Part shown: positions 2,890-64,000 of the stretch, one piece after another | Layout: the number at the start of each line of letters is the position of its first letter | Numbering within the stretch: position 1 is the stretch's first letter | NCBI RefSeq assembly: GCF_017377715.1 | Contig: NZ_JAFVMF010000002.1 | Span: 62,001 to 126,000 of the forward strand | Source of the DNA: Acetobacter sacchari | GTDB lineage: Bacteria > Pseudomonadota > Alphaproteobacteria > Acetobacterales > Acetobacteraceae | DNA length: 64,000 nt | Reading direction: 5' to 3' | Notes under the pieces: generated by a model | Told to the model about the DNA's origin: nothing | The model's database searches: none | What the model saw: only the letters and a program-made list of their open reading frames with translations | Translations under genes and position numbers: made by a program

Positions 2890-4086
2890 TCACTCGCCCA
2901 TCAGTTGCTGGGACTCTTCGGGCGAGAGCTTTCCTGTCACGGGGTGCCCGAGCACGGCTTGCAGCCGCTTGATCGCAGCGTGCGTCGCAGCGCTGTCGTA
3001 ACCGGTCACCTGACCGGAATAGAAACCCTTGGCGAGCAGCGCCAATTGCGCATTACGCACAGCCGGATCCGTCTTCGGCGGCACGACGCGTTTCGGCGGC
3101 GGGGCTACCGGCGCAGCAGCTGCAACCGAGGGCGCGCTTGCTGCAGAACCTTCTGCTGCAGCCGCTGGTTTTTCTTCAGCAGCTGCAACAGGGACTGGCG
3201 AAGGCGCTGGAGCTGGCGGCGGAGTAATGACCGCCGGCTTCGTAGCGCCCGCGACCGCCTCTGGTGATGACGTTACGGGAGGCGGCGCGACGACAGGCGT
3301 CGCCGGTTTAGCCGGGGCTGGAGCACCCGATGGCGCAACTTGCGAAGGCGTTGTCGCGCCCTGCGAAGTAACCGCCGCAGCGGCAGGCGCACCGGCCAGA
3401 GCGCCACCTGCCGCGGAACTACCCGCAGCGTATGGCTGGGGGGAGGCCGCAGCCGGGAGGAACACGCCCGGGAAGAATGCGTCGGCGCCGCGCAGCGCCG
3501 TGGTGATGAGGGTATCTATGACGCTGGCGCCGTTGGCGTCTTCGTCAACGCCCCCGAGCTTCCGCCCCCCGATCGCAGGATCGGAGCGCCACTGGGCGAC
3601 GGCGTTTCCTAGCGGCGGATCAGCCGAAAGCGGGTGTAGATCAAGAATGACGCCGCCGTTCGGCTGAACGATTCTGGAAAACGCCGTGGCGCTCATCGCG
3701 CCGCGAGACAGGTCTTCGGTAGCGATCGGCGTGCCGCTCGGAAGCAGAAACAGGCGGCCGCCGCGGACGGCCCCGTATCCACAAACCACCAGCAGTTGCG
3801 GCGTGCGGCTCGCATCAAGGGATGCGGCCATCATCGCGGCGCGGACCCCGTTCGCGTCGGGCGATTCAAGAAGGCGAGTCGGCACCCCGGCAGCTTTTAA
3901 ACTCGCCTGCAGCAGTGGCATTTTTGCAGCGCAACCGCTGAGTTTCGGCAGAGTTTCAACAGTAGGCAGGTTGATCAGCGTGGCGGAGACGGGCTCGGCG
4001 TAAGCGGAACCTCCCAAAGCCGCACCCAGCAGAAGCGCTGCAAAAGACGCCCGGCGAGGGAGGCGCGAAAGGGGACGAAACATCAT
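2890..4086 (-). CDS. Secreted pseudo-caspase-like protein with C-terminal peptidoglycan-binding domain
   Basis: A 398-residue protein with a signal peptide ending near SAYA (30), a caspase/peptidase C14-like core (about 50-215), a long Ala/Pro linker (about 225-340) and a C-terminal repeat (344-398) of PG-binding-1 type. In the core, VCGYG (about 101-105) sits where active caspases have GHG, and ILDLH (about 147-151) sits where they have the DAC cysteine. Both catalytic residues would therefore be missing. The ATG at 4086 is preferred because GGAGG lies 11 nt upstream. The gene precedes the HAMP sensor by 4 bp. A periplasmic wall-binding accessory of the T6SS signalling operon is the best guess. 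Caspase kinship is judged by eye. Confidence 0.6.
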   Translation of the reverse strand: MMFRPLSRLPRRASFAALLLGAALGGSAYAEPVSATLINLPTVETLPKLSGCAAKMPLLQASLKAAGVPTRLLESPDANGVRAAMMAASLDASRTPQLLVVCGYGAVRGGRLFLLPSGTPIATEDLSRGAMSATAFSRIVQPNGGVILDLHPLSADPPLGNAVAQWRSDPAIGGRKLGGVDEDANGASVIDTLITTALRGADAFFPGVFLPAAASPQPYAAGSSAAGGALAGAPAAAAVTSQGATTPSQVAPSGAPAPAKPATPVVAPPPVTSSPEAVAGATKPAVITPPPAPAPSPVPVAAAEEKPAAAAEGSAASAPSVAAAAPVAPPPKRVVPPKTDPAVRNAQLALLAKGFYSGQVTGYDSAATHAAIKRLQAVLGHPVTGKLSPEESQQLMGE

Positions 4087-51761: not shown

Positions 51762-52566
51762 TTTGCGCTTCCATTTTTATTAACGCTATATCGCCGTACA
51801 AAATTTCGCCGGTGACTATGCGCTTCAACTCCGGACCGCAGCGCAGAAGAAGTTCCCCGCCTTCGCCGATCCCCTCGAATTCGCCTTCAACATAGGTTTT
51901 TCCCCCGCTGACCACAAGGGGCGCGCCCCGATGCGGCCCCCGCTCCAGCCAGGCCTGCCTGATCGGGGCGAAACCCTCGCGCTCCCACACTGCGCGCCAG
52001 CGCGTCAGCGCAGCCAGCACACGCCGTCCCACGACCGCCGCTTCCGCCTCGGGATCGTATTGCGCGAGGCACGCCAGCGTGCGGCCCTCCACCTCCGGCG
52101 CGCGCCGGATATTGGCGCCGAAACCGATCACGACCCATCCGCCTTCGCCGCCGCTGGCTTCGACCAGAATGCCCGCCAGCTTGTGTCCATCCAGCAGGAT
52201 GTCGTTCGGCCATTTGACGCGCAGACGCGGCGTCAGCACGCCGTCGGCCAGTGCGTCGTAGTACGCCAGCGCGCTGATGAACGACCATGGCGCGCTGACC
52301 GAGGACACGTTCCTTTCAGGCCTCATCAACACAGAGAGCGCAAGGCTGTCGCCGGGATCGGCCCACGTGCGCCCCCGCGTGCCACGCCCTTTGGTCTGGC
52401 GGCGCGCCAGTAGCGCGAGCCCCTCCGCCTCTCCGAGATCCGCGCGCTCTATGCAGACGTCGGACGTCGAGGGCAGCTCGTCATGCAGCTCGAGCCGCCA
52501 GCCGGAGACGTCCTCCCGGACGAACTCAGCCGACAAGAGCTTTCGCCGCCGCTCCGGCCGCTTCAC
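51745..52566 (-). CDS. birA: Biotin--[acetyl-CoA-carboxylase] ligase
   Basis: 273 residues, the short form without the N-terminal DNA-binding domain, so it is a ligase and not a repressor. Motifs are GRGTRGRTW (biotinyl-AMP binding), [17 protein letters not shown] and an SH3-like C-terminal segment with [16 protein letters not shown]. The start is unclear: a GTG at 52566 lies inside nuoN by 41 bp, and a TTG at 52536 is the alternative. No ATG is available near the N-terminus. Confidence 0.92.
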
Positions 52567-53950
52567 TCACCGGTCCGAGCGCCAGAAGAAAAAGCACCGT
52601 CGCCAGCCCCATGGCGGCGGACACGAACGCGATGGACGGCGCAGGTTTGTCGAACGGCGCGACCGAAGCGTCGAAATACACCACCTTCACCACGCGCAGG
52701 TAATAGAAGGCGCCGATCACCGCAGACAGCGCGCCGACAGCGACCAGCCCGTAGAGGCCCGCGTTCCAAGCTGCGCCGAACACCATGAACTTACCGAAGA
52801 ACCCGGCAAGCGGCGGCACGCCGATCATGCTGAACATGCAGATCGCCATCACCATGGCCATCGCCGGGTTGGTACGGCCGAGTCCTGCGAGGTCAGCGAT
52901 CGTCGTCACCTCACGTCCACGACGGCGCATGGCCGAGATGACGCCGAACACGCCGACATTCATCACCAGATACGTCGTCAGATAGACCAGCGTCCCGCGC
53001 GTTCCCACCGGGGTCGCCGCCGCGAGGCCCATCATCGCGTATCCCATATGACCGATCGACGAATACGCCATCAGACGCTTGATGTCGCGCTGCGGGATCG
53101 CCGCCAGCGCGCCAAACAGCATCGACAACGCCGAAATCACTTCGATCAGAAGCTGCCAGCGCGGCGACATCGCGCCGAACGGCCCCATCATCACCCGCAG
53201 GATCAATGCGAACGCGGCGAACTTCGGAGCGCCCGCCATGAACGCCGTCACAGGTGTCGGCGAACCCTGATAGACGTCAGGCGTCCACATATGGAACGGC
53301 ACGGCCGACAGCTTGAAGGCCAGGCCGACGACGATGAACACGACACCGATGACCAGTCCCACCGGCAAGGCGCCAGCGCCGTTGATTTCGACGGCGATCG
53401 GCGCGAACTCCATCGTGCCCGCGAAACCGTAGGCGAGCGACGCGCCATAGAGCAGCAACCCGGACGCCAGGGATCCGAGGATGAAGTATTTCAGCCCGGC
53501 CTCCGCCGCCTCCACCCGATCCCGCTCAATGGCGCAGAGAATGTAGATCGACAGCGACGACAGTTCGAGCCCGACGAACAGCGTCATCAGGTTCGCCGAC
53601 GACGCCATGATCATCGCGCCAAGCGTGGAAAACAGCATCAGGATCGGCGTTTCGAACGGCAGGGCGCTCTTGCCGTCAGAATACCCGATCGACAACGTGA
53701 TCGATGCGACGCCGCCCGCGATCACCAGCAGCTTGATGAAGCGCGCGAAGGCGTCCACGACGAAAACGTCGCCGTAGCCGAAGCCGCTGGAAGACGTCGT
53801 CACCAGAAACCCGGAGACGATCATCGCTGCGACGCTCAACGTGGCGCTGGGAAGGAACGCCTCCTCCTTGCGCATCAGGACGCCCGCAGCGAGGATCACG
53901 AGACCACTGACCGCCAGCACGATCTCCGGCAGGGCGAGTGTCCAGTTCAT
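52526..53950 (-). CDS. nuoN: NuoN, NADH-quinone oxidoreductase subunit N
   Basis: 474 residues, a proton-pumping antiporter-like subunit with 14 expected helices. The N-terminal LALPEIVLAVSGLVIL is characteristic of NuoN. The discontinuous-helix region (FMAGAPKFAAFALILRV) and the loop with KLSAVPFHMWTPDVYQGSPTPVTAF are present. It starts 9 nt after a GGAG ribosome site. The gene before it is nuoL, not the expected nuoM; the spacer is 148 bp. Confidence 0.95.
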   Translation of the reverse strand: MNWTLALPEIVLAVSGLVILAAGVLMRKEEAFLPSATLSVAAMIVSGFLVTTSSSGFGYGDVFVVDAFARFIKLLVIAGGVASITLSIGYSDGKSALPFETPILMLFSTLGAMIMASSANLMTLFVGLELSSLSIYILCAIERDRVEAAEAGLKYFILGSLASGLLLYGASLAYGFAGTMEFAPIAVEINGAGALPVGLVIGVVFIVVGLAFKLSAVPFHMWTPDVYQGSPTPVTAFMAGAPKFAAFALILRVMMGPFGAMSPRWQLLIEVISALSMLFGALAAIPQRDIKRLMAYSSIGHMGYAMMGLAAATPVGTRGTLVYLTTYLVMNVGVFGVISAMRRRGREVTTIADLAGLGRTNPAMAMVMAICMFSMIGVPPLAGFFGKFMVFGAAWNAGLYGLVAVGALSAVIGAFYYLRVVKVVYFDASVAPFDKPAPSIAFVSAAMGLATVLFLLALGPVSEAAGAAAKALVG

Positions 53951-54098
53951 CGTCTCAACTCCATCGAACGGACGTGCGGCAGAGGCACGCGCCCCATCCC
54001 CTCACGCGCAGGAAAAGCACGCAAAAAACACCCGACGGGACGACCGCCGCTCTCGCCGCCCGGCTTACGGAACGACACGGCCGCAGGCATCGCGCCCG
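53951..54098 (-). other. nuoL-nuoN spacer where nuoM is expected
   Basis: This 148-bp segment sits exactly where nuoM (about 1.5 kb) belongs. A frame from 54090 to 53947 would encode 47 residues and overlaps the nuoN start as ATGA. Its sequence is hydrophilic and rich in Gly and Arg, with no resemblance to a NuoM end. I see no pseudogene trace and no IS scar. Confidence 0.7.
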
Positions 54099-56039
54099 TC
54101 ACTGGAAGAACACCACCGTCGTGACGAGCGCAACCAGACCGATCAGCATCGACAGCGCGTAGATCGCAATGGAGCCGGTCTGCGAGCGCGTGGCCAGCAC
54201 CGCGCCGCCCAGCGTCAAGCGGGCCAGTTCAACCGGCGCTTTCTCGATAACGCCCTCGTCGTTGCGACGCAGAAGGCGGGCGATCACACGATACGGCCCC
54301 ACGAAGATGCGGTCATACAGCTCGTCGAAATACCACTTGTTCAACAGGAACAGGTACAGCGGTCGGAACGACGAGGCCACTGCGGCAGGCAGTTCGGGCT
54401 TCGCTATGTAAAAGACATAGGCCACAGCGATACCCAGAAGCCCAGCGACGCTCGGCAGCAGCGCGATCGGCGTGGGAACCTCCTCGATCATGCTCATGAT
54501 TGTATTGCCTGGCGCGTTGACGATCGCCCCGGCCCAGAACATCGCCTGCTTCGAACCGACATAGAGCGGAGCCAGCACCGCGCCAGCCGCGAGCGCGCCG
54601 ATGGACAGCAGCACGAGCGGCGCGACCATGACCGGCGGGCTTTCATGCGCGCCGTCATGCAGATGCTGGTCGCGTGGTTTCCCGTGGAACACCAGGAAAA
54701 GCAGCCGCCAGCTGTAGAACGCCGTGATGAAGGCCGTGACCGTACCCAGAACCCAGCCATACATGCCGACGCTGCTGCCCGACGCCCAGGCCGCGTTCAG
54801 GATCGCGTCCTTGGACCAGTAGCCCGCGAAGGGAAACACGCCGGCGAGTGCGAGGCTACCGATCCACATCACCACATAGGTGACAGGAATTTTCCGCCAC
54901 AGGCCGCCCATACGGAACATGTCCTGCTCGTCGTGAACGGCGTGAATGACCGAACCAGCGCCAAGGAACAGCAGCGCCTTGAAGAAAGCGTGCGTCGTCA
55001 GATGAAACACACCCGCCTGATACGCGCCGACGCCAATGGCGACGAACATGTAGCCAAGCTGCGAACACGTCGAATAGGCGATGGTCCGCTTGATGTCCGG
55101 CTGCACCATGCCGACCGTCGCGGCGAAGAAACACGTCGTCCCGCCGATCAGGACAATGAACTCCCGCGTGTACGGAGTGAACTCGATCAGCGGCGACATG
55201 CGCGCCATCAGGAACACGCCCGCCGTGACCATGGTGGCCGCGTGAATGAGCGCGGAAACCGGCGTCGGACCTTCCATCGCATCCGGCAGCCATGTGTGCA
55301 GGAACAACTGCGCCGACTTGCCCATCGCGCCGACGAACAGCAGCGTCGCAATCACTTCCAGCAGCGAATGCGGACTGCCGAACAGCATGTAGGCATTGCG
55401 CGCCTGATCGGGGACCAGCGAGAAGATATTGTCGTACTGAACCGTCCCGAAGGTGACGAACAGCAGACCGATGCCGACGATAAAGAAAAGGTCGGCGATA
55501 CGGTTCACCACGAAGGCTTTGATCGCCGCCGCGTTCGCGCTCGGCTTCTGGAACCAGTACCCGATCAGCAGATAACTCGCGAGGCCTACGCCTTCCCAGC
55601 CGAAGAAAAGCTGGATCAGGTCATTGGACGACACCAGCATGAGCATGGCGAAGGTGAACAGTGACAGGTACGCAAAGAAGCGATAGCGCGGCATCGAGTC
55701 ATGGGACATGTACCCGACGCTGTAGATATGGACGAGCAGGGAGACCGTCAGCACCATCGCCGTCATCGTCGCCGACAGCGTATCGAAACGCAGCGCCCAC
55801 GCCGCGTGGAACGACCCGGCGTCAACCCAGTGCGCCAGCAGCGCGACGCCCGGCATCGCGCCGGACGTCATGCCGCCGATCAGCGCGCCATAGCTGCACA
55901 GCGCCGCCACGACCATGAACAGGATCGAGACGAACTGCGCCACGCCGTCGCCAAGACGCCGTCCGAAGAGCCCGGAGATCGCGGCGCCGCCCAGCGGGGC
56001 AAGCACAGCAATCGCGAAAAGGATCAATGCCGCCTGCAT
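54099..56039 (-). CDS. nuoL: NuoL, NADH-quinone oxidoreductase subunit L
   Basis: 646 residues. Markers are the SLLVHIYSVGYMSHD segment, the WEGVGLASYLLIGYW block, the TWLPDAMEGPTPVSALIHAATMVTAGV motif with the pumping Lys/Glu set, and the long lateral-helix C-terminus (about 490-640). It is the distal antiporter-like module of complex I. It is full length, so it has not been fused with nuoM. It follows nuoK by 6 bp. Confidence 0.97.
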   Translation of the reverse strand: MQAALILFAIAVLAPLGGAAISGLFGRRLGDGVAQFVSILFMVVAALCSYGALIGGMTSGAMPGVALLAHWVDAGSFHAAWALRFDTLSATMTAMVLTVSLLVHIYSVGYMSHDSMPRYRFFAYLSLFTFAMLMLVSSNDLIQLFFGWEGVGLASYLLIGYWFQKPSANAAAIKAFVVNRIADLFFIVGIGLLFVTFGTVQYDNIFSLVPDQARNAYMLFGSPHSLLEVIATLLFVGAMGKSAQLFLHTWLPDAMEGPTPVSALIHAATMVTAGVFLMARMSPLIEFTPYTREFIVLIGGTTCFFAATVGMVQPDIKRTIAYSTCSQLGYMFVAIGVGAYQAGVFHLTTHAFFKALLFLGAGSVIHAVHDEQDMFRMGGLWRKIPVTYVVMWIGSLALAGVFPFAGYWSKDAILNAAWASGSSVGMYGWVLGTVTAFITAFYSWRLLFLVFHGKPRDQHLHDGAHESPPVMVAPLVLLSIGALAAGAVLAPLYVGSKQAMFWAGAIVNAPGNTIMSMIEEVPTPIALLPSVAGLLGIAVAYVFYIAKPELPAAVASSFRPLYLFLLNKWYFDELYDRIFVGPYRVIARLLRRNDEGVIEKAPVELARLTLGGAVLATRSQTGSIAIYALSMLIGLVALVTTVVFFQ

Positions 56040-56045
56040 CGCCGG

Positions 56046-56369
56046 TCAGCCCTTCATCAACGCCACGTCCTCGACCTGGATCGAGCCGCGGTTGCGGAAA
56101 TAGACGGTGAGGATGGCAAGGCCGATGGCCGCCTCCGCCGCAGCGATGGTCAGCACGAAGACCGTCAGGACCTGCCCCGACAGATCGCCCAGCGCCGCAG
56201 AGAACGCGACGAGGTTGATGTTGGCGGCCAGCAGGATCAGCTCCATCGACATCATGATGATGATGATGTTCTTGCGGTTCAGGAAAATCCCGAACACGCC
56301 GAGCACCAGCAGCGCCGCTCCGACCGTAAGAAAAGGCCCCAGACCGATCTGGGCGAAAGCGTCGTTCAT
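56046..56369 (-). CDS. nuoK: NuoK, NADH-quinone oxidoreductase subunit K
   Basis: 107 residues with three helices. It carries the [23 protein letters not shown] helix, with the conserved Glu of the membrane proton path, and a second acidic helix [16 protein letters not shown]. The N-terminus is a few residues longer than the usual 101-102. It overlaps nuoJ by 4 bp. Confidence 0.96.
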
Positions 56370-57133: not shown

Positions 57134-57622
57134 TCAGCGATACGGCGCATCGAGTTCGAGCCTCCGCGCCAGCACGCTCTCCCATCTGTCGCCGTTGGCG
57201 AGCAGCTTGTTCTTGTCGTACATCAGTTCTTCACGGGTCTCGGTCGCGAACTCGTAGTTCGGCCCTTCGACGATTGCATCCACCGGGCAGGCTTCCTCGC
57301 ACAGGCCGCAATAGATGCACTTCGTCATGTCGATGTCGTAGCGCGTTGTCCGGCGCGAACCGTCGTCGCGCGCCTCGGACTCGATCGTGATCGCTTCCGC
57401 AGGGCACGCGGCCTCGCACAGCTTGCACGCGATGCAGCGTTCCTCGCCATTTGGATAGCGCCGCAACGCGTGCTCGCCCCGGAAACGCGGCGAAAGCGGC
57501 CCCTTCTCATAGGGATAATTGAGCGTGACTTTCGGCTTGAACATCGTCTTGAACGTCGCGGTCATGCCGGCGACGATCTCGGTCAGCAGAAACGCCTTGA
57601 GGCTGCGGTCGAGGCCGGCCAT
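57134..57622 (-). CDS. nuoI: NuoI, NADH-quinone oxidoreductase subunit I (8Fe-8S ferredoxin)
   Basis: 162 residues from the ATG at 57622; the frame is open far upstream, but that part is the shadow of nuoH. Two 4Fe-4S motifs are clear: [12 protein letters not shown] (63-74) and [12 protein letters not shown] (102-113). They pass electrons from the NuoG side towards NuoB. The start overlaps the nuoH stop by one base (TGATG). Confidence 0.97.
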
Positions 57623-58644
57623 CAGCTTACTCCCTGAGGCAGATTGCCCGTTGCGAGCAGGAACCCTGCGGTCGCGATCATCCACAGCAGCGAGAACGGC
57701 AGGAACACTTTCCAGCCCAGCCGCATGAGCTGATCGTAACGGTAGCGGGGGAACGTAGCGCGCACCCAGATGAACACGAACAGGCAGAACAGGATCTTGG
57801 CGATCAGCCAGATCGGACCAGGAATCCAGGTCAGCGGCGCAATTCCCAGCGGCGGCAGCCAGCCGCCGAGAAAGAGAATGCTCACCATCCCCGACATCAG
57901 GATCATGTTCGCGTATTCGCCGAGAAAGAACAGACCGAAGGACAGCGACGAGTATTCGACGAAGAACCCGGCCACCAGTTCGGACTCGCCCTCGGGGAGA
58001 TCGAACGGCGCACGGTTCGTCTCGGCGAGAGCCGAGATGAAGAAGATGATGAACATCGGGAACATCGGCACGCAGAACCATATGTGCCGTTGCGCCAGGA
58101 TGATGTCGTTCAGGTTCAGACTGCCCACGGCCAGAAGCACCGACACGATCACCAGACCGATCGACACCTCATACGAGACCATCTGCGCCGCAGAGCGAAG
58201 TCCGCCAAGGAACGCGTATTTCGAATTCGACGCCCAGCCCGCGATCAGGATGCCGTAGACGCCCAGCGAGGAAATCGCGAGCAGATACAGGATGCCAACA
58301 TTGATGTTGGCGACCGCCAGACCATCTCCCGTCGGGATTACCGCCCATGCCAGCATGGCGAGGGAGAACGTCAGGAACGGAGCCAGAAGAAAGAGGAAAC
58401 GGTTGGCCCCGCTGGGGATGATCGTCTCCTTGGTCATCATCTTGATGGCGTCCGCAAAGGCCTGCAGCACGCCGAAAAGACCGTTCACATTCGGGCCGCG
58501 CCGCATCTGCATCGCGGCCATGACCTTACGCTCCATGAGCGTCAGGTAGGCGACCGCGATCAGAAGCGGCACCAGAATCGCCAGCGCTTCGAGCACCAGC
58601 AGGATGACGTTGCCGGTCGTCGTATGGAAGAAGAACTGTTCCAC
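57622..58644 (-). CDS. nuoH: NuoH, NADH-quinone oxidoreductase subunit H
   Basis: 340 residues from a GTG at 58644. I chose it because GGAG lies 7 nt upstream and it clears the nuoG stop by 4 bp; the frame to 58680 would overlap nuoG. Quinone-chamber features are [23 protein letters not shown]-type sequence near 35-60, and [20 protein letters not shown] in the second half. It contains the ubiquinone entry channel. Confidence 0.95.
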
Positions 58645-58648
58645 GTCG

Positions 58649-60688
58649 CTACTCCGCCGCCACAGCCGCGTGCGGGGCATGAACGCTGGCGCATTCCTGC
58701 ATCGTCGCGCTCGCCCGGCAAATCGGGTTCGTCAGGTAATAGCTGGCGCCCGAAGACGCGAACGGCTTCGAAAGCACGCTGTCGGACAGCCCTTCCGTCG
58801 TCGAACGCCGCGCGGTCACATGACGCGCCCCGACCTGCAGCTGCTCGCGCAGCGCCTCGATCGTGTCGTAGGGCAGCGTATGCCCCAGCACGTCGGACAC
58901 CGCGCGCAGGATGCGCCAGTCCTCGCGCGCCTCACCCGGCGGGAACACTGCCTGGAACCCGCGCTGCACGCGGCCTTCGGTGTTCACCCAGGTGCCCTGC
59001 TTTTCGGTGTACGCAGCCCCCGGAAGGATCACGTCCGCTCGGGCGGCACCCGCGTCGCCATGATGCCCCTGATAGATCACGAACGTGTCCGGCCCGATCC
59101 CGTGCACCGGAAACTCGTCCGCGCCGAGCAGCCACAACACATCGACGCCGCCGCTGAGCATGCCGCGCACGCTGCGCCCGCCTTCGGCCGGAAGGAAGTC
59201 GAGGTCCAGGGCCGCCACCCGCGAAGCAGCCGTGTGCAGGACGTTCAGGCCGGACCACTCATCCGTCACCGCGCCCACAGTTTCCGCCAGCAGCGCGCAG
59301 GCCTTGAGCACAACCGGGCTGTCGTCGCGCGTCAGCGCGCCCTGCCCAACGATGATCATCGGGCGCTTCGCCGCCTTCAGCTTTTCGAGGAACGGGTTTC
59401 CGTCCGCCATCAGATCGGCCAGCGCCGAAGCGCCCGCGCCCAGGGATTCGTATGCCCATGTCGGGTCGGAGCCCATATCGCCGATCACACCGATCGGAAG
59501 ACCGCCTCGGCCTGCTTCGAGATATCTTTTACGGATGCGCGCGTTTAGCACCGGCGCATCGTGACGGGGGTTCGCTCCGATCACCAGCAGCGCGTCGGCC
59601 TCGTCGATTCCCGCGATGCCGGACGAGAACGTATAGTTCGCGCGGTCGGACACGTCGTAATGCGCGCCGTCCTGACGGCAATCGAGATTGGGCGACCCCA
59701 TAGAGATCATGAGGTCGCGCAGCGCCATCATGCTCTCGGCGTCACACAGGTCGCCGACGATTGCGCCGATACGCGAGCCGGGAACGCCTTCGAGACGGCG
59801 GGCTATGGCGACGAACGCGTCCTGCCACGACACGGCCTGAAGCTTGCCGTGGACCTTCACCCAGGGGCGATCCAGACGGCGGCGCAGCAGGCCGTCTATG
59901 GCGAAGCGGCCTTTATCGGACAGCCATTCCTCGTTCACCTCGTCGTTGACGCGCGGAACGATGCGCTTCACCTCGCCGCCACGCGCCTGAATCTGGATAT
60001 TGGTCCCGAGCGCGTCCATCACGTCGATGGCGTCGGTCTTCTTCAACTCCCACGGGCGTTGCTGAAACGCGCCGGGCTTGGAGGTCAGGGCGCCGACAGG
60101 GCAGATGTCGATCAGGTTGCCGGAAAGCTCGGACGTCAGAGCCTTCTCGACATAGGTCGTGATCTCCATGTTCTCGCCACGCGACACGGCGCCCAGTTCC
60201 GGCGTTCCAGCCACTTCGGCGCAGAACCGGACGCAGCGCGTGCACTGGATGCAGCGCGTCATGACCGTCTTGACCAGCGGTCCGAGATTCTTGTCCGTAA
60301 CTGCCCGTTTCGGCTCGTCGTACCGCGACACGCCGCTACCGTAACCGTAAGCCTGATCCTGCAGATCGCATTCGCCGCCCTGATCGCAGATCGGACAGTC
60401 CAGCGGATGGTTGATCAGCAGGAATTCCATGACAGAACGACGCGCCTTGCGGACGACCTCCGTATCCGTCTTGATCTCCATGCCTTCCGCAACGGGAAAG
60501 CCGCACGACGCCACCGGCTTTGGCGCGCGCACGACCTCGACAAGGCACATGCGGCAGTTGCCCGCGACCGACAGACGCTCGTGATAGCAGAAGCGCGGAA
60601 TTTCCTTCCCGGCGGCCTCGCAGGCCTGCAGCGCGGATGAGCCCGCCGGCACATCGACCGGCGTTCCGTCGACGATAACCCTCACCAT
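58649..60688 (-). CDS. nuoG: NuoG, NADH-quinone oxidoreductase subunit G
   Basis: 679 residues, the alphaproteobacterial length, shorter than the E. coli protein. N-terminal 2Fe-2S cysteines lie in [15 protein letters not shown], then the HxxxCxxCxxxxxC cluster in [14 protein letters not shown], then [11 protein letters not shown] for a 4Fe-4S cluster. The molybdopterin-oxidoreductase-like remainder lacks a cofactor role. It belongs to the NADH-oxidising arm with NuoE and NuoF. Confidence 0.97.
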
Positions 60689-60693
60689 TCGCC

Positions 60694-62028
60694 TTACTCC
60701 GCCGCGAGGGTCGCGAGGGTCGCGGGCGACGGCGCATCAATCCGTCCCGCGCCGCCATGCAGCCGCTTGTAGTTGTGAATCCGCTCTTCCATCAGCGGTC
60801 GGAAATGCCGGATCAGCCCCTGAATCGGCCACGCGGCCGCATCGCCCAGCGCGCAGATCGTGTGTCCTTCAACCTGACGCGTAACCTGCTCGAGCATGTC
60901 GATTTCTTCGATCTCGGCGCGGCCTTCGACCATGCGGTTCATCACGCGCATCATCCAGCCTGTGCCTTCGCGGCAGGGCGTGCACTGCCCGCAGCTCTCA
61001 TGCTTGAAGAACTGCGAAAAGCGCGCGATCGCCTTGATGATGTCCGTGGACTTGTCCATCACGATCATGCACGCGGTGCCGAGGCCAGAGCGTTCGGCGC
61101 GCAGGCTGTCAAAGTCCATCAGCACCGTTTCGCAGACCGATTTCGGCAGCAACGGCACCGAGCATCCGCCCGGAATGACGGCCAGCAGATTGTCCCACCC
61201 GCCGCGCACACCGCCGCCGTGCTTCTCGATGATCTCACGCAGCGGAACGCCCAACTCCTCCTCGAACACGCAAGGCGTGTTCACGTGGCCGGAAATCGCC
61301 ATCAGCTTGGAGCCGCAATTGTTCGGACGTCCCAGCCCTGCAAACCATGCAGCCCCGCGCCGCAGGATGGTGGACGCCACCGAGATGCTCTCGACGTTGT
61401 TCACCGTGGTCGGGCAACCATACAGACCGGCGCCCGCCGGGAACGGCGGCTTCATGCGCGGCTGACCCTTCTTGCCTTCAAGGCTCTCCAGCAGCGCCGT
61501 CTCTTCGCCGCAGATATACGCGCCCGCGCCGCGATGGATGTAGAAATCGAAATCCCAGCCAGAGCCTGCGGCGTTTGGGCCGAGCAGTCCGGCGTCATAC
61601 GCCTCGTCGATCGCGATCTGGAGGTGCCGCGCTTCGTTGAAGAACTCGCCGCGGATATAGATATACGCCGCGTGCGCGCCCATCGCGAAAGACGCGAGCA
61701 GGGCGCTTTCGATCAGCTTGTGCGGCTCGTGCCGCAGGATTTCGCGGTCCTTGCAGGTGCCGGGTTCGGACTCGTCCCCGTTGATGACGAGGTAACGCGG
61801 CACAGGCCCGTCGCCCTTCGGCATGAACGACCATTTCAGACCAGTCGGGAACCCCGCACCGCCACGGCCGCGCAGGTTCGACGCCTTCATCTCGTTGACG
61901 ATGGCGTCGCGGCCGCGCGCGATCAGTTCGGCCGTGCCATTCCAGTCTCCGCGCGCGCGCGCGCCAGCCAGACGCCAGTCGTTCTGGCCGTAAAGGTTGG
62001 TGAAGATCCGATCCTTGTCGCTGAGCAT
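60694..62028 (-). CDS. nuoF: NuoF, NADH-quinone oxidoreductase subunit F
   Basis: 444 residues. The NADH/FMN region is seen in [17 protein letters not shown] and [15 protein letters not shown]. The 4Fe-4S N3 motif is [12 protein letters not shown] in the C-terminal part. It oxidises NADH and passes electrons through FMN. It lies 5 bp before nuoG. Confidence 0.98.
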
Positions 62029-62040
62029 CGCGTCTTCTCC

Positions 62041-62670
62041 CTATCCCTGACCCGGTTCGCCAGCGTCGAGCAGCACCTTGCGGCCGCCTTCAGGCGCGGA
62101 GTTAAAGCGATCGATCGTAGGCCCATAGGCCGGGCGCTCGCCCTTGCGGAGCGCTTCGATCAACTGCTCCGTACGGGGGCCGTCGAGATCCTCGTAATAA
62201 TCGCTGTCGACCTGAAGTATCGGCGCGTTCGCGCAGGCGCCGAGGCATTCGACTTCCGTCAGCGTGAACATCCCGTCCTCGCTGGTTTCTCCAAAATGCT
62301 GGATGCCTGTGGCCTTCTTGCAGGCCGCGACCACATCGTCCGACCCGCGCAGCCAGCAGGAGGTCGTCGTGCACGCCTGCAGATGGTAGCGCCCGATCGG
62401 CTTCGTGTTGAACATCAGATAGAAGGTCGCGACCTCGTAGACGCGGATCGGCGCGACCTCCAGACGGGCGGCGATGGCGTCCATGGCTGCGACCGGCACC
62501 CAGGCGCTGTCTGTCAGGCGACCCATCTGCCGCTGGGCGACGTAGAGCAGCGGAATCACGCCACTGGCCTTACGCTCCGGCGGATACTTCGCCAGAATCG
62601 TCGCGATTTCCGCTTCGCTGGCCTCGTCGAACGCGAAATGGACCGGTTGTTCCGGCGTCTGAGCGCTCAT
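62041..62670 (-). CDS. nuoE: NuoE, NADH-quinone oxidoreductase subunit E (24 kDa)
   Basis: 209 residues with a thioredoxin-like fold. The 2Fe-2S ligands are in [14 protein letters not shown] and [14 protein letters not shown]. The C-terminal extension after about 170 is Arg/Gly-rich, as in other alphaproteobacteria. The start overlaps the nuoD stop by 4 bp. Confidence 0.97.
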
Positions 62671-63944
62671 CGATCCACCTCACCGAACACGAGATCGAGC
62701 GAACCGATGATGGCCACCGTGTCGGCCAGCATGGAACGTCGTGACAATTCATCTATCGCCTGCAGATGCGAGAACCCGGTCGGACGGATCTTGCAGCGGT
62801 AGGGACGGTTGCTGCCGTCCGCCACCAGATACACGCCGAACTCGCCCTTAGGCGTTTCGACCGCCGTGTAGGTCGCGCCGGGGGGAACGTGATATCCCTC
62901 CGTGAAGAGCTTGAAGTGATGGATCAACGCTTCCATCGACTGTTTCATCTCGGCGCGCTTCGGCGGGGAGAATTTCGGGTCCTGCACCTTGATCGGGCCG
63001 GGTTTGATCTGCGCCAGCCCCTGCTCGATGATTTTCACGCTCTCACGCATCTCGGCCACGCGGACCAGATACCGGTCGTAGCAGTCGCCGTGACGCGCCA
63101 CGGGAATTTCGAACGAGACCTTGTCGTAATTGTCGTAAGGTTGCGAGCGGCGCAGATCCCATGGCACGCCGGAACCGCGCAGACACGGGCCGCTGAAGCC
63201 CCAGGCCAGCGCCTGCTCTGTCGTAAATACGCCGATGCCGACGGTACGCTGCTTCCAGATGCGGTTTTCCGTCAGCAGGCTCTCAAGGTCGTCGATCCAG
63301 GAGGGGAATTCCTTCGCCCAGCTGGCGATGCGTTCTTCGAGACCAGCGGGCAGATCGCGCGCGACGCCGCCGGGACGGAAGTAATTGGCGTGAAACCGTG
63401 CGCCAGAGGCGGCTTCATGGAATTCCAGAAGTTTCTCCCGCTCCTCATACCCCCACAGGGCGGGCGTCACCGCGCCGCAATCCAGACCCATCGCAGTCAG
63501 GTTGAGGATGTGATTCAGGATTCGCGTAATTTCCGCGAAGATCACACGAATCCACTTGGCGCGATCCGGCGCCTCGATCCCCAACAGCTTTTCGGTGGCC
63601 AGCGCGAACGCGTGCTCCTCACACATCGGTGAGACGTAATCGAGGCGATCGAAATACGGCAGCGCCTTCTGATACGTCTTGTATTCGATCAGCTTTTCCG
63701 TGCCGCGGTGCAGCAGGCCGATATGCGGCACCGCACGGGCGACGACCTCGCCTTCCATCTCCAGCACAAGACGCAGCACGCCGTGCGCAGACGGATGCTG
63801 AGGCCCGAAATTCAGCGCGTGGCTGTCAATCTCGACCGTGCGTCGCTCAGCCTGCTCGACTGCCTGTTCGGGCAGAAGAGACACCGGCACGGCCGCTTCG
63901 CCAAGGGCGTGGTCCAACGCTGCCTGCTCGATCGCATTCGTCAT
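62667..63944 (-). CDS. nuoD: NuoD, NADH-quinone oxidoreductase subunit D (49 kDa)
   Basis: 425 residues. After a variable N-terminus of about 40 residues, [21 protein letters not shown] begins the family core, with the quinone-binding His. [14 protein letters not shown] and the [17 protein letters not shown]-terminus are canonical. It forms part of the quinone site with NuoB. A separate NuoC precedes it, so this is not the fused NuoCD form. Confidence 0.98.
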
Positions 63945-63954
63945 GACGGCCCCG

Positions 63955-64000
63955 TCAGCTCAGCTTTTTCATGATCTGGCGCAGTTCATGCGCCTTTTCG
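63955..64000 (-). CDS. nuoC: Probable NuoC, C-terminal end only
   Basis: Only the last 15 codons are inside the window ([14 protein letters not shown] then TGA at 63957-63955), 10 bp before nuoD. Position in the operon predicts NuoC. The visible tail is not diagnostic by itself. Confidence 0.6.

What the first reader, a model, noticed from the sequence alone, without database searches (positions are those of the whole stretch)
53951..54098. Complex I operon lacks nuoM between nuoL and nuoN
In bacterial nuo operons nuoM lies between nuoL and nuoN. Here nuoC(partial)-D-E-F-G-H-I-J-K-L are followed directly by nuoN after 148 bp, and both flanking genes are intact and full length. NuoM is one of three proton-pumping antiporter-like subunits and bridges NuoL and NuoN, so a true absence would imply a modified enzyme with fewer pumping units or a non-functional one. 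The spacer shows no IS, no pseudogene remnant and no recognisable NuoM sequence. The alternatives are nuoM elsewhere in the genome or an assembly collapse (nuoL, nuoM and nuoN are homologous).
Basis: partly seen in the sequence, partly recalled or inferred. Interest (0 to 1): 0.82.

Follow-up and report, generated by a model that had tools for sequence, protein, structure and literature searches.

The report
Complex I gene nuoM moved elsewhere
In this vinegar-type bacterium the gene for one proton-pumping part of respiratory complex I is not missing but sits elsewhere in the genome, an old rearrangement shared with relatives, so the enzyme is most likely complete.

Summary
In detail: nuoL (54099-56039, -) is followed by nuoN (52526-53950, -) after 148 bp, with no nuoM or remnant. 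The main reading (a NuoM-less enzyme) is wrong. The same genome has an intact nuoM on another contig (G000:C72:221729-223246, 505 aa, TIGR01972 550 bits, cut-off 263.8); the other 13 nuo genes form one operon. Collapse is excluded: 24 of 24 other genomes of the genus (Acetobacter) have NuoM apart. The split is in print for A. pasteurianus, where NuoM protein changes with operon-coded subunits.

Trees add history. 20 displaced NuoM form one clade, as do their genomes by NuoL+N and 13 of them by RpoB. In 3 of 397 family genomes, one genus, a displaced-type orphan coexists with an in-operon-type NuoM; the one orphan placed in trees is sister to the displaced copies, not to its own operon copy. 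Best reading: a diverged second NuoM within Acetobacteraceae took over and the operon copy was deleted once. Selection and key residues look normal.

The parts
52526..53950 (-). nuoN, intact, 474 aa
   Evidence: NF004440 571.2 bits, cut-off 519
53951..54098 (.). 148-bp nuoL-nuoN spacer, the former place of nuoM; no remnant detected
   Evidence: In 18 of 19 other displaced genomes the spacer is 4 to 77 bp, measured to the ORF start or, where the ORF start overlaps nuoL (L046, L047, L053), to the homologous N-terminus; the 19th (G126, L055) could not be measured because the nuoN ORF picked starts far upstream
54099..56039 (-). nuoL, intact, 646 aa
   Evidence: NF005141 778.6 bits, cut-off 556
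56046..56369 (-). nuoK, 107 aa
56366..57109 (-). nuoJ
   Evidence: name by my reading of the translation; a homologue lies beside nuoK in 20 of 20 loci L039-L058
57134..57622 (-). nuoI (start approximate; the listed ORF runs further upstream)
   Evidence: translation read by eye
57622..58680 (-). nuoH (ORF as listed; true start may lie inside)
   Evidence: translation read by eye
58649..60688 (-). nuoG
   Evidence: translation read by eye
60694..62028 (-). nuoF
   Evidence: translation read by eye
62041..62670 (-). nuoE
   Evidence: translation read by eye
62667..63944 (-). nuoD
   Evidence: translation read by eye
63955..64000 (-). 3' end of nuoC; the rest of nuoC, then nuoB and nuoA, lie beyond the window (G000:C100 up to about 127605)
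   Evidence: translations read by eye. The displaced nuoM itself is outside the window: G000:C72:221729-223246 (-), L003:1234-2751

Best explanation
The Acetobacter genome encodes a complete 14-subunit complex I as a split locus: nuoA-L plus nuoN in one operon, nuoM apart. Shown: nuoM is present, intact, under purifying selection comparable with nuoL and nuoN, and keeps the charged residues of the proton path. Shown for A. pasteurianus by published proteomics: the separately listed NuoM changes with the operon-coded subunits. Inferred: NuoM is made from its own locus and inserted between NuoL and NuoN as usual. Inferred history (about 0.6, see the section on the most novel reading; the confidence below is for the split but complete enzyme): a diverged second NuoM was present in an ancestor of these bacteria, replaced the operon copy, and the operon copy was cleanly deleted once; in the window's subgroup the gene stands in another neighbourhood (mlaA-mlaC-GST-nuoM-ung) than in relatives where it follows mutL.
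For: Own genome: three PF00361 proteins, the window's NuoL and NuoN plus one on C72; that one scores 550 bits to the NuoM model and is open over 505 aa. Operon otherwise complete. 24 of 24 other genomes of the genus have the best NuoM away from the other antiporter matches; in 23 a match that fits NuoN by its pattern is listed, on another contig or 0.87-2.0 Mb off, and in G010 the one further listed match is a 287-aa fragment that I did not tell apart as L or N. Of 150 family genomes 18 have NuoM and NuoN apart and all 18 have NuoN; G092 (NuoM fragment on another contig than NuoN) and G138 (NuoM row not listed) were not counted. NuoM trees: 20 displaced NuoM 97/92 and 96/84, with the G140 orphan 100/100. 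The same 20 genomes form one clade in NuoL+N (100/100), 13 of them in RpoB (100/99). 66 of 397 family genomes score 798-918 bits to the displaced-type profile, next match 706; 3 of the 66 (G140, G196, G239) also hold an in-operon-type NuoM at 681-682 bits. E144, K223, K254, E396 in 20 of 20 displaced and in the orphan. dN/dS by simple counting, four pairs: nuoM 0.09-0.17, nuoL 0.08-0.15, nuoN 0.04-0.13 (ratios). Literature: nuoA-nuoN operon APT_01737-01725 and nuoM APT_00690 in A. pasteurianus SKU1108 (PMC5158111, passages); NuoM fig_HN.1610 at 0.62, 0.33, 2.16, 1.78 beside NuoN fig_HN.3354 at 0.93, 0.31, 2.22, 2.12 (PMC10742644, passages).
Against: No expression or enzyme data for the window's own strain. 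In the proteomics NuoN did not fall in the first comparison (0.93) where NuoM did (0.62). The displaced NuoM is diverged: it falls just under NCBI's equivalog cut-off (583.3 against 585), the G140 orphan further under (515.3), while G140's in-operon copy scores 795.2. A paper on Gluconacetobacter diazotrophicus names nuoA-nuoN and lao, nuoM among them, as a probable operon (PMC9368920, passages), which does not fit the split unless it means the second type of operon or loose annotation. The replacement history rests on one genus with both copies, only one of whose genomes (G140) was put in trees; its place beside the displaced clade is weak in RpoB (85/68) and unresolved in NuoL+N. The G140 orphan shares no neighbourhood with the 20 displaced loci compared.
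Confidence: 0.93

Rival explanations
1. Plain relocation: the original operon nuoM itself moved out once and diverged afterwards; the G140 orphan is a copy received from that lineage early on.
For: Displaced NuoM lies inside Acetobacteraceae NuoM (100/99 against 14 NuoM of other families of the class), and its inner branching largely follows NuoL+N. The gene stands in different neighbourhoods within Acetobacter.
Against: The G140 orphan branches outside all 20 displaced copies (97/92; 96/84); the displaced clade has a long stem (0.53-0.65) and groups with in-situ NuoM of G063, G136, G108 and G179 rather than with the lineages nearest by RpoB.
Confidence: 0.3
2. The displaced NuoM was acquired from another Acetobacteraceae lineage (near the group of G063, G136, G108 and G179) and then replaced the native copy. 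This is one of the two routes covered by the replacement history above; the other is an old duplication.
For: NuoM trees place displaced plus orphan beside that group (97/94; 98/94), whereas RpoB puts G063, G136 and G108 earlier than G140 and the acetic acid bacteria (96/91 and 95/93; G179 not in that tree); an AU test rejects a clade of displaced plus orphan with G140's own in-situ copy (p 0.0003; group chosen after the tree was seen).
Against: Both groups are on longer branches, so attraction between them is possible; an old duplication gives the same tree.
Confidence: 0.35
3. True loss: the organism has a complex I without NuoM.
For: No nuoM in the operon and no remnant in the spacer.
Against: Intact nuoM on contig C72, a NuoM in 24 of 24 other genomes of the genus, purifying selection.
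Confidence: 0.02
4. Assembly collapse removed nuoM between nuoL and nuoN.
For: nuoL, nuoM and nuoN are homologous; the assembly has 166 contigs.
Against: nuoL directly followed by nuoN in 20 of 20 loci read from as many genomes (L039-L058), among them G053 (1 contig), G161 (2), G013 and G014 (3); nuoM sits inside a 386-kb contig.
Confidence: 0.01
5. The displaced NuoM-like protein serves another complex (an Mrp- or hydrogenase-type antiporter) and complex I runs without NuoM.
For: It stands alone, beside mlaA, mlaC, GST and ung in this genome or directly after mutL in 11 of 20 displaced loci.
Against: NuoM models win by far: 583 and 551 bits against 177 for the best Mrp model, cut-off 542. NuoM protein co-varies with NuoB-I and NuoN in A. 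pasteurianus. Of 150 family genomes 17 lack NuoM and 17 lack NuoN at the thresholds used; 14 are the same genomes, 9 of them at least 98% complete, while the 6 that lack only one are fragmented or incomplete assemblies.
Confidence: 0.03

Closest known systems
Split nuo locus of Acetobacter pasteurianus SKU1108 (PMC5158111; passages seen)
   Same: nuoA-nuoN operon with nuoM at a distant locus tag (APT_00690 against APT_01737-01725)
   Different: In the passages seen it is listed as conserved in three strains, without comment on origin; here it is traced through a clade, with a genus that has both copies
Canonical alphaproteobacterial nuo operon and NuoM (PDB 8qby chain M; that it is Paracoccus is recalled)
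   Same: Alignment over residues 4-486, 436 bits; key charged residues kept
   Different: Canonical nuoM lies between nuoL and nuoN; here it does not
'Split' complex I as a general category (PMC12361115; passages seen)
   Same: Nuo subunits not clustered together, said to occur in the majority of its complex I clades
   Different: Its main text does not name Acetobacter (0 occurrences) and the passages seen do not speak of a replaced NuoM; it reports plasmid-borne Nuo genes in Komagataeibacter saccharivorans
Duplicated NuoM of the Nitrospirales 2M complex I (PMC12342949; passages seen)
   Same: A second NuoM exists beside the first
   Different: There two NuoM belong to one complex; here the diverged copy is coded alone and remote

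Membership tests
NuoM, proton-pumping subunit of complex I (TIGR01972) | Score over the curated NuoM cut-off | tested here: met
   550.7 bits against 263.8; NCBI equivalog NF004499 just missed, 583.3 against 585
NuoM, proton-pumping subunit of complex I (TIGR01972) | Charged residues of the proton path (Glu TM5, Lys TM7, Lys TM8, Glu TM12; roles and helix numbers recalled from E. coli NuoM) | tested here: met
   E144, K223, K254, E396 of P0001, in 20 of 20 displaced NuoM and in the G140 orphan
NuoM, proton-pumping subunit of complex I (TIGR01972) | Coded between nuoL and nuoN | tested here: not met
   148-bp spacer only; a common but not a defining feature of the protein
NuoM, proton-pumping subunit of complex I (TIGR01972) | Protein present in assembled complex I | not testable with these tools
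   Only co-variation of abundance in published A. pasteurianus proteomics
NuoM-less complex I | No nuoM in a complete genome | tested here: not met
   nuoM on C72 of a 99.7% complete genome
Mrp antiporter subunit D | Score over the Mrp-type cut-off | tested here: not met
   177 bits against 542 for NF009306

The most novel reading that the evidence does not exclude
A core proton-pumping subunit of complex I was replaced in evolution: a diverged paralogue or laterally gained NuoM, coded away from the operon, took over in the ancestor of these acetic acid bacteria, and the native gene was deleted; one living genus still carries both, so its complex I may be able to assemble with either NuoM.
Probability: 0.6. 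Interest if true: 0.5.

Novelty: new member of a known kind. Interest (0 to 1): 0.3.

Why it matters
It removes a would-be exception to the three-antiporter design of complex I and warns that operon-based annotation of acetic acid bacteria will report a false gap. If the replacement history holds, the genus with both copies gives a natural test of whether a core membrane subunit of complex I can be swapped, and whether its pumping or assembly differs.

Tried and rejected
Rejected: true absence of NuoM; assembly collapse; NuoM remnant in the spacer; origin of the displaced NuoM outside the family, as far as 14 NuoM of other families of the class can tell; a recent duplication of the operon copy in the G140 lineage (AU p 0.0003).

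Led nowhere: a first RpoB tree was invalid because my script took antisense reading frames for several rows; redone. Of the 80 loci (L147-L178) are cyanobacterial, 1 (L143) an unnamed bacterium and 47 Acetobacteraceae or Rhodospirillales; they were used only to put names to contigs by length, and G140 got no name. Its single 2.7-Mb contig and its place in the tree recall Granulibacter, but nothing here proves that. No shared upstream motif between nuoA and nuoM was sought and no structure was predicted. NuoL+N leaves G140 unresolved. Of three genomes with both copies, only G140 was put in trees.

Paper searches behind statements on print: nuoM with acetic acid bacteria, with Acetobacter plus nuo operon, with Acetobacteraceae plus complex I, with Gluconacetobacter, with Komagataeibacter, two on nuoM outside the operon, one on Granulibacter. 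Seven papers were seen as passages, none as a whole; the rest only in search listings.

Full report
What was claimed and what is there. That is correct: nuoL 54099-56039 and nuoN 52526-53950, both on the minus strand and both over NCBI's equivalog cut-offs, are 148 bp apart. The spacer carries no recognisable NuoM remnant: its best six-frame score against 60 NuoM proteins is 38, below the mean of 40 shuffled spacers at 43.2. The rest of the operon, nuoD to nuoK in the window and nuoA, nuoB and nuoC at and beyond its edge, is present (names other than nuoK, nuoL and nuoN by reading the translations).

The missing gene is elsewhere. A whole-genome search with PF00361 finds three antiporter-like proteins: the window's NuoL and NuoN, and one at G000:C72. 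The third is an open frame of 505 aa that scores 550 bits to the NuoM family TIGR01972 against a cut-off of 263.8 and aligns over residues 4-486 with chain M of PDB 8qby. Glu144, Lys223, Lys254 and Glu396, which match the conserved charged residues of the proton path (roles recalled), are kept in 20 of 20 displaced NuoM proteins compared. Synonymous and non-synonymous differences in four pairs of genomes give dN/dS of 0.09-0.17 for nuoM, 0.08-0.15 for nuoL and 0.04-0.13 for nuoN (ratios computed). It is a gene under ordinary selection.

It is not an assembly fault. In 24 of 24 other genomes of the genus the best NuoM lies away from the other antiporter matches; in 23 a match that fits NuoN by its pattern is listed, on another contig or 0.87-2.0 Mb off, and in G010 the one further listed match is a fragment that I did not tell apart. 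Among 150 genomes spread over the family, 18 have NuoM and NuoN apart, among them G053, a single contig; G092 and G138, where a contig break or an unlisted row hides the arrangement, were not counted. In 20 loci of this kind read as DNA, nuoL is directly followed by nuoN in all 20 (L039-L058).

It is partly in print. [quoted passage not shown] A proteomic study of A. pasteurianus lists NuoM as fig_HN.1610, NuoB to NuoI as fig_HN.3342-3350 and NuoN as fig_HN.3354; NuoM stands at 0.62, 0.33, 2.16 and 1.78-fold in four comparisons, NuoN at 0.93, 0.31, 2.22 and 2.12, NuoB (3342) at 0.39, 0.24, 2.72 and 2.05 (PMC10742644, passages seen). The numbering leaves three slots, 3351-3353, between nuoI and nuoN, which fits J, K and L with no nuoM (my inference). 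So the remote NuoM is made and broadly moves with the operon.

History. In a NuoM tree of 60 rows the 20 displaced NuoM form one clade (97/92), joined at 100/100 by an orphan NuoM of genome G140. With 14 NuoM of other families of the class added, displaced plus orphan stay inside Acetobacteraceae (family split 100/99) on a long stem of 0.65. NuoL+N of the same 20 genomes form one clade at 100/100, and RpoB of 13 of them at 100/99 (of 30 genomes asked for, 28 gave RpoB). The order inside the clade is largely the same for NuoM and NuoL+N, although the places of G041, G126 and G049 differ or are weak.

An intermediate state exists. A profile of the displaced type separates cleanly over 397 family genomes: 66 score 798-918 bits and the next best match scores 706. 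Three of the 66, G140, G196 and G239 of one genus, also hold an in-operon-type NuoM at 681-682 bits; for G140 it was checked to lie beside nuoL and nuoN. That search scored only three candidates per genome, so a further copy could be missed. In the RpoB tree G140 is among the nearest relatives of the displaced clade, but weakly (85/68, with G071). An AU test rejects a clade of the displaced and orphan NuoM with G140's own in-operon copy (p 0.0003; the group was chosen after seeing the tree), so this is not a recent local duplication; the nearest in-situ NuoM are those of G063, G136, G108 and G179 (97/94 and 98/94). Old duplication followed by differential loss, or transfer within the family, fit best; long branches on both sides forbid a firm choice.

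Neighbourhood. In 11 of 20 displaced loci nuoM directly follows mutL (L019, L021-L025, L029-L032, L037); parE-like genes are in the tiling of 14 of the 21 loci compared (names mutL, ileS and parE are my reading of the translations). In the window's genome and in G013 and G020 it follows mlaA-mlaC instead, with a GST and ung beside it in the window's genome, and mutL lies on another contig in all three. The gene has thus stood in at least two places within Acetobacter. In G140 the orphan lies between a protein without a Pfam match and a glutamyl-tRNA-synthetase-like gene, 0.28 Mb from mutL.

Verdict. Observation confirmed; the inference of a reduced or broken complex I not supported. The enzyme is most likely complete, built from two loci. 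What remains of interest is the probable one-time replacement of a core proton-pumping subunit by a diverged copy, for which the genus with both copies is the natural test case. I found no paper that discusses this replacement in the searches, which cover open-licence papers only.

Noticed in passing
G063, G136, G126, G082, G100, G113, G169 and others (loci L080-L082, L086-L098); by scores also G003, G007, G008, G015, G018: Several Acetobacteraceae carry a second, distant type of nuo genes with its own L-M (mostly L-M-N), NuoM 35-43% identical to the window genome's; G086, G125 and G048 gave only this type at the thresholds. For the five Acetobacter genomes the type is inferred from scores only.
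   Followed up: partly
G051 C1:993077-994525 (L083) and G142 C1:2218110-2219552 (L084): Extra NuoM without a listed NuoN beside it in two other genera that also hold an in-operon NuoM; in the trees they are a clade beside G045, so extra NuoM copies arose more than once in the family.
   Followed up: partly
two of the 18 in-operon NuoM rows (rows not identified): The TM8 lysine is Asn in 2 of 18 in-operon NuoM proteins compared.
   Followed up: no
G072, G094, G101, G106, G110, G141, G157, G170, G175: Nine family genomes at least 98% complete, 1.9-2.6 Mb, give neither NuoM nor NuoN at the thresholds used, which suggests loss of this complex I.
   Followed up: no
PMC12361115: Komagataeibacter saccharivorans is reported to carry Nuo subunits on a plasmid; possibly the second type of operon.
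   Followed up: no
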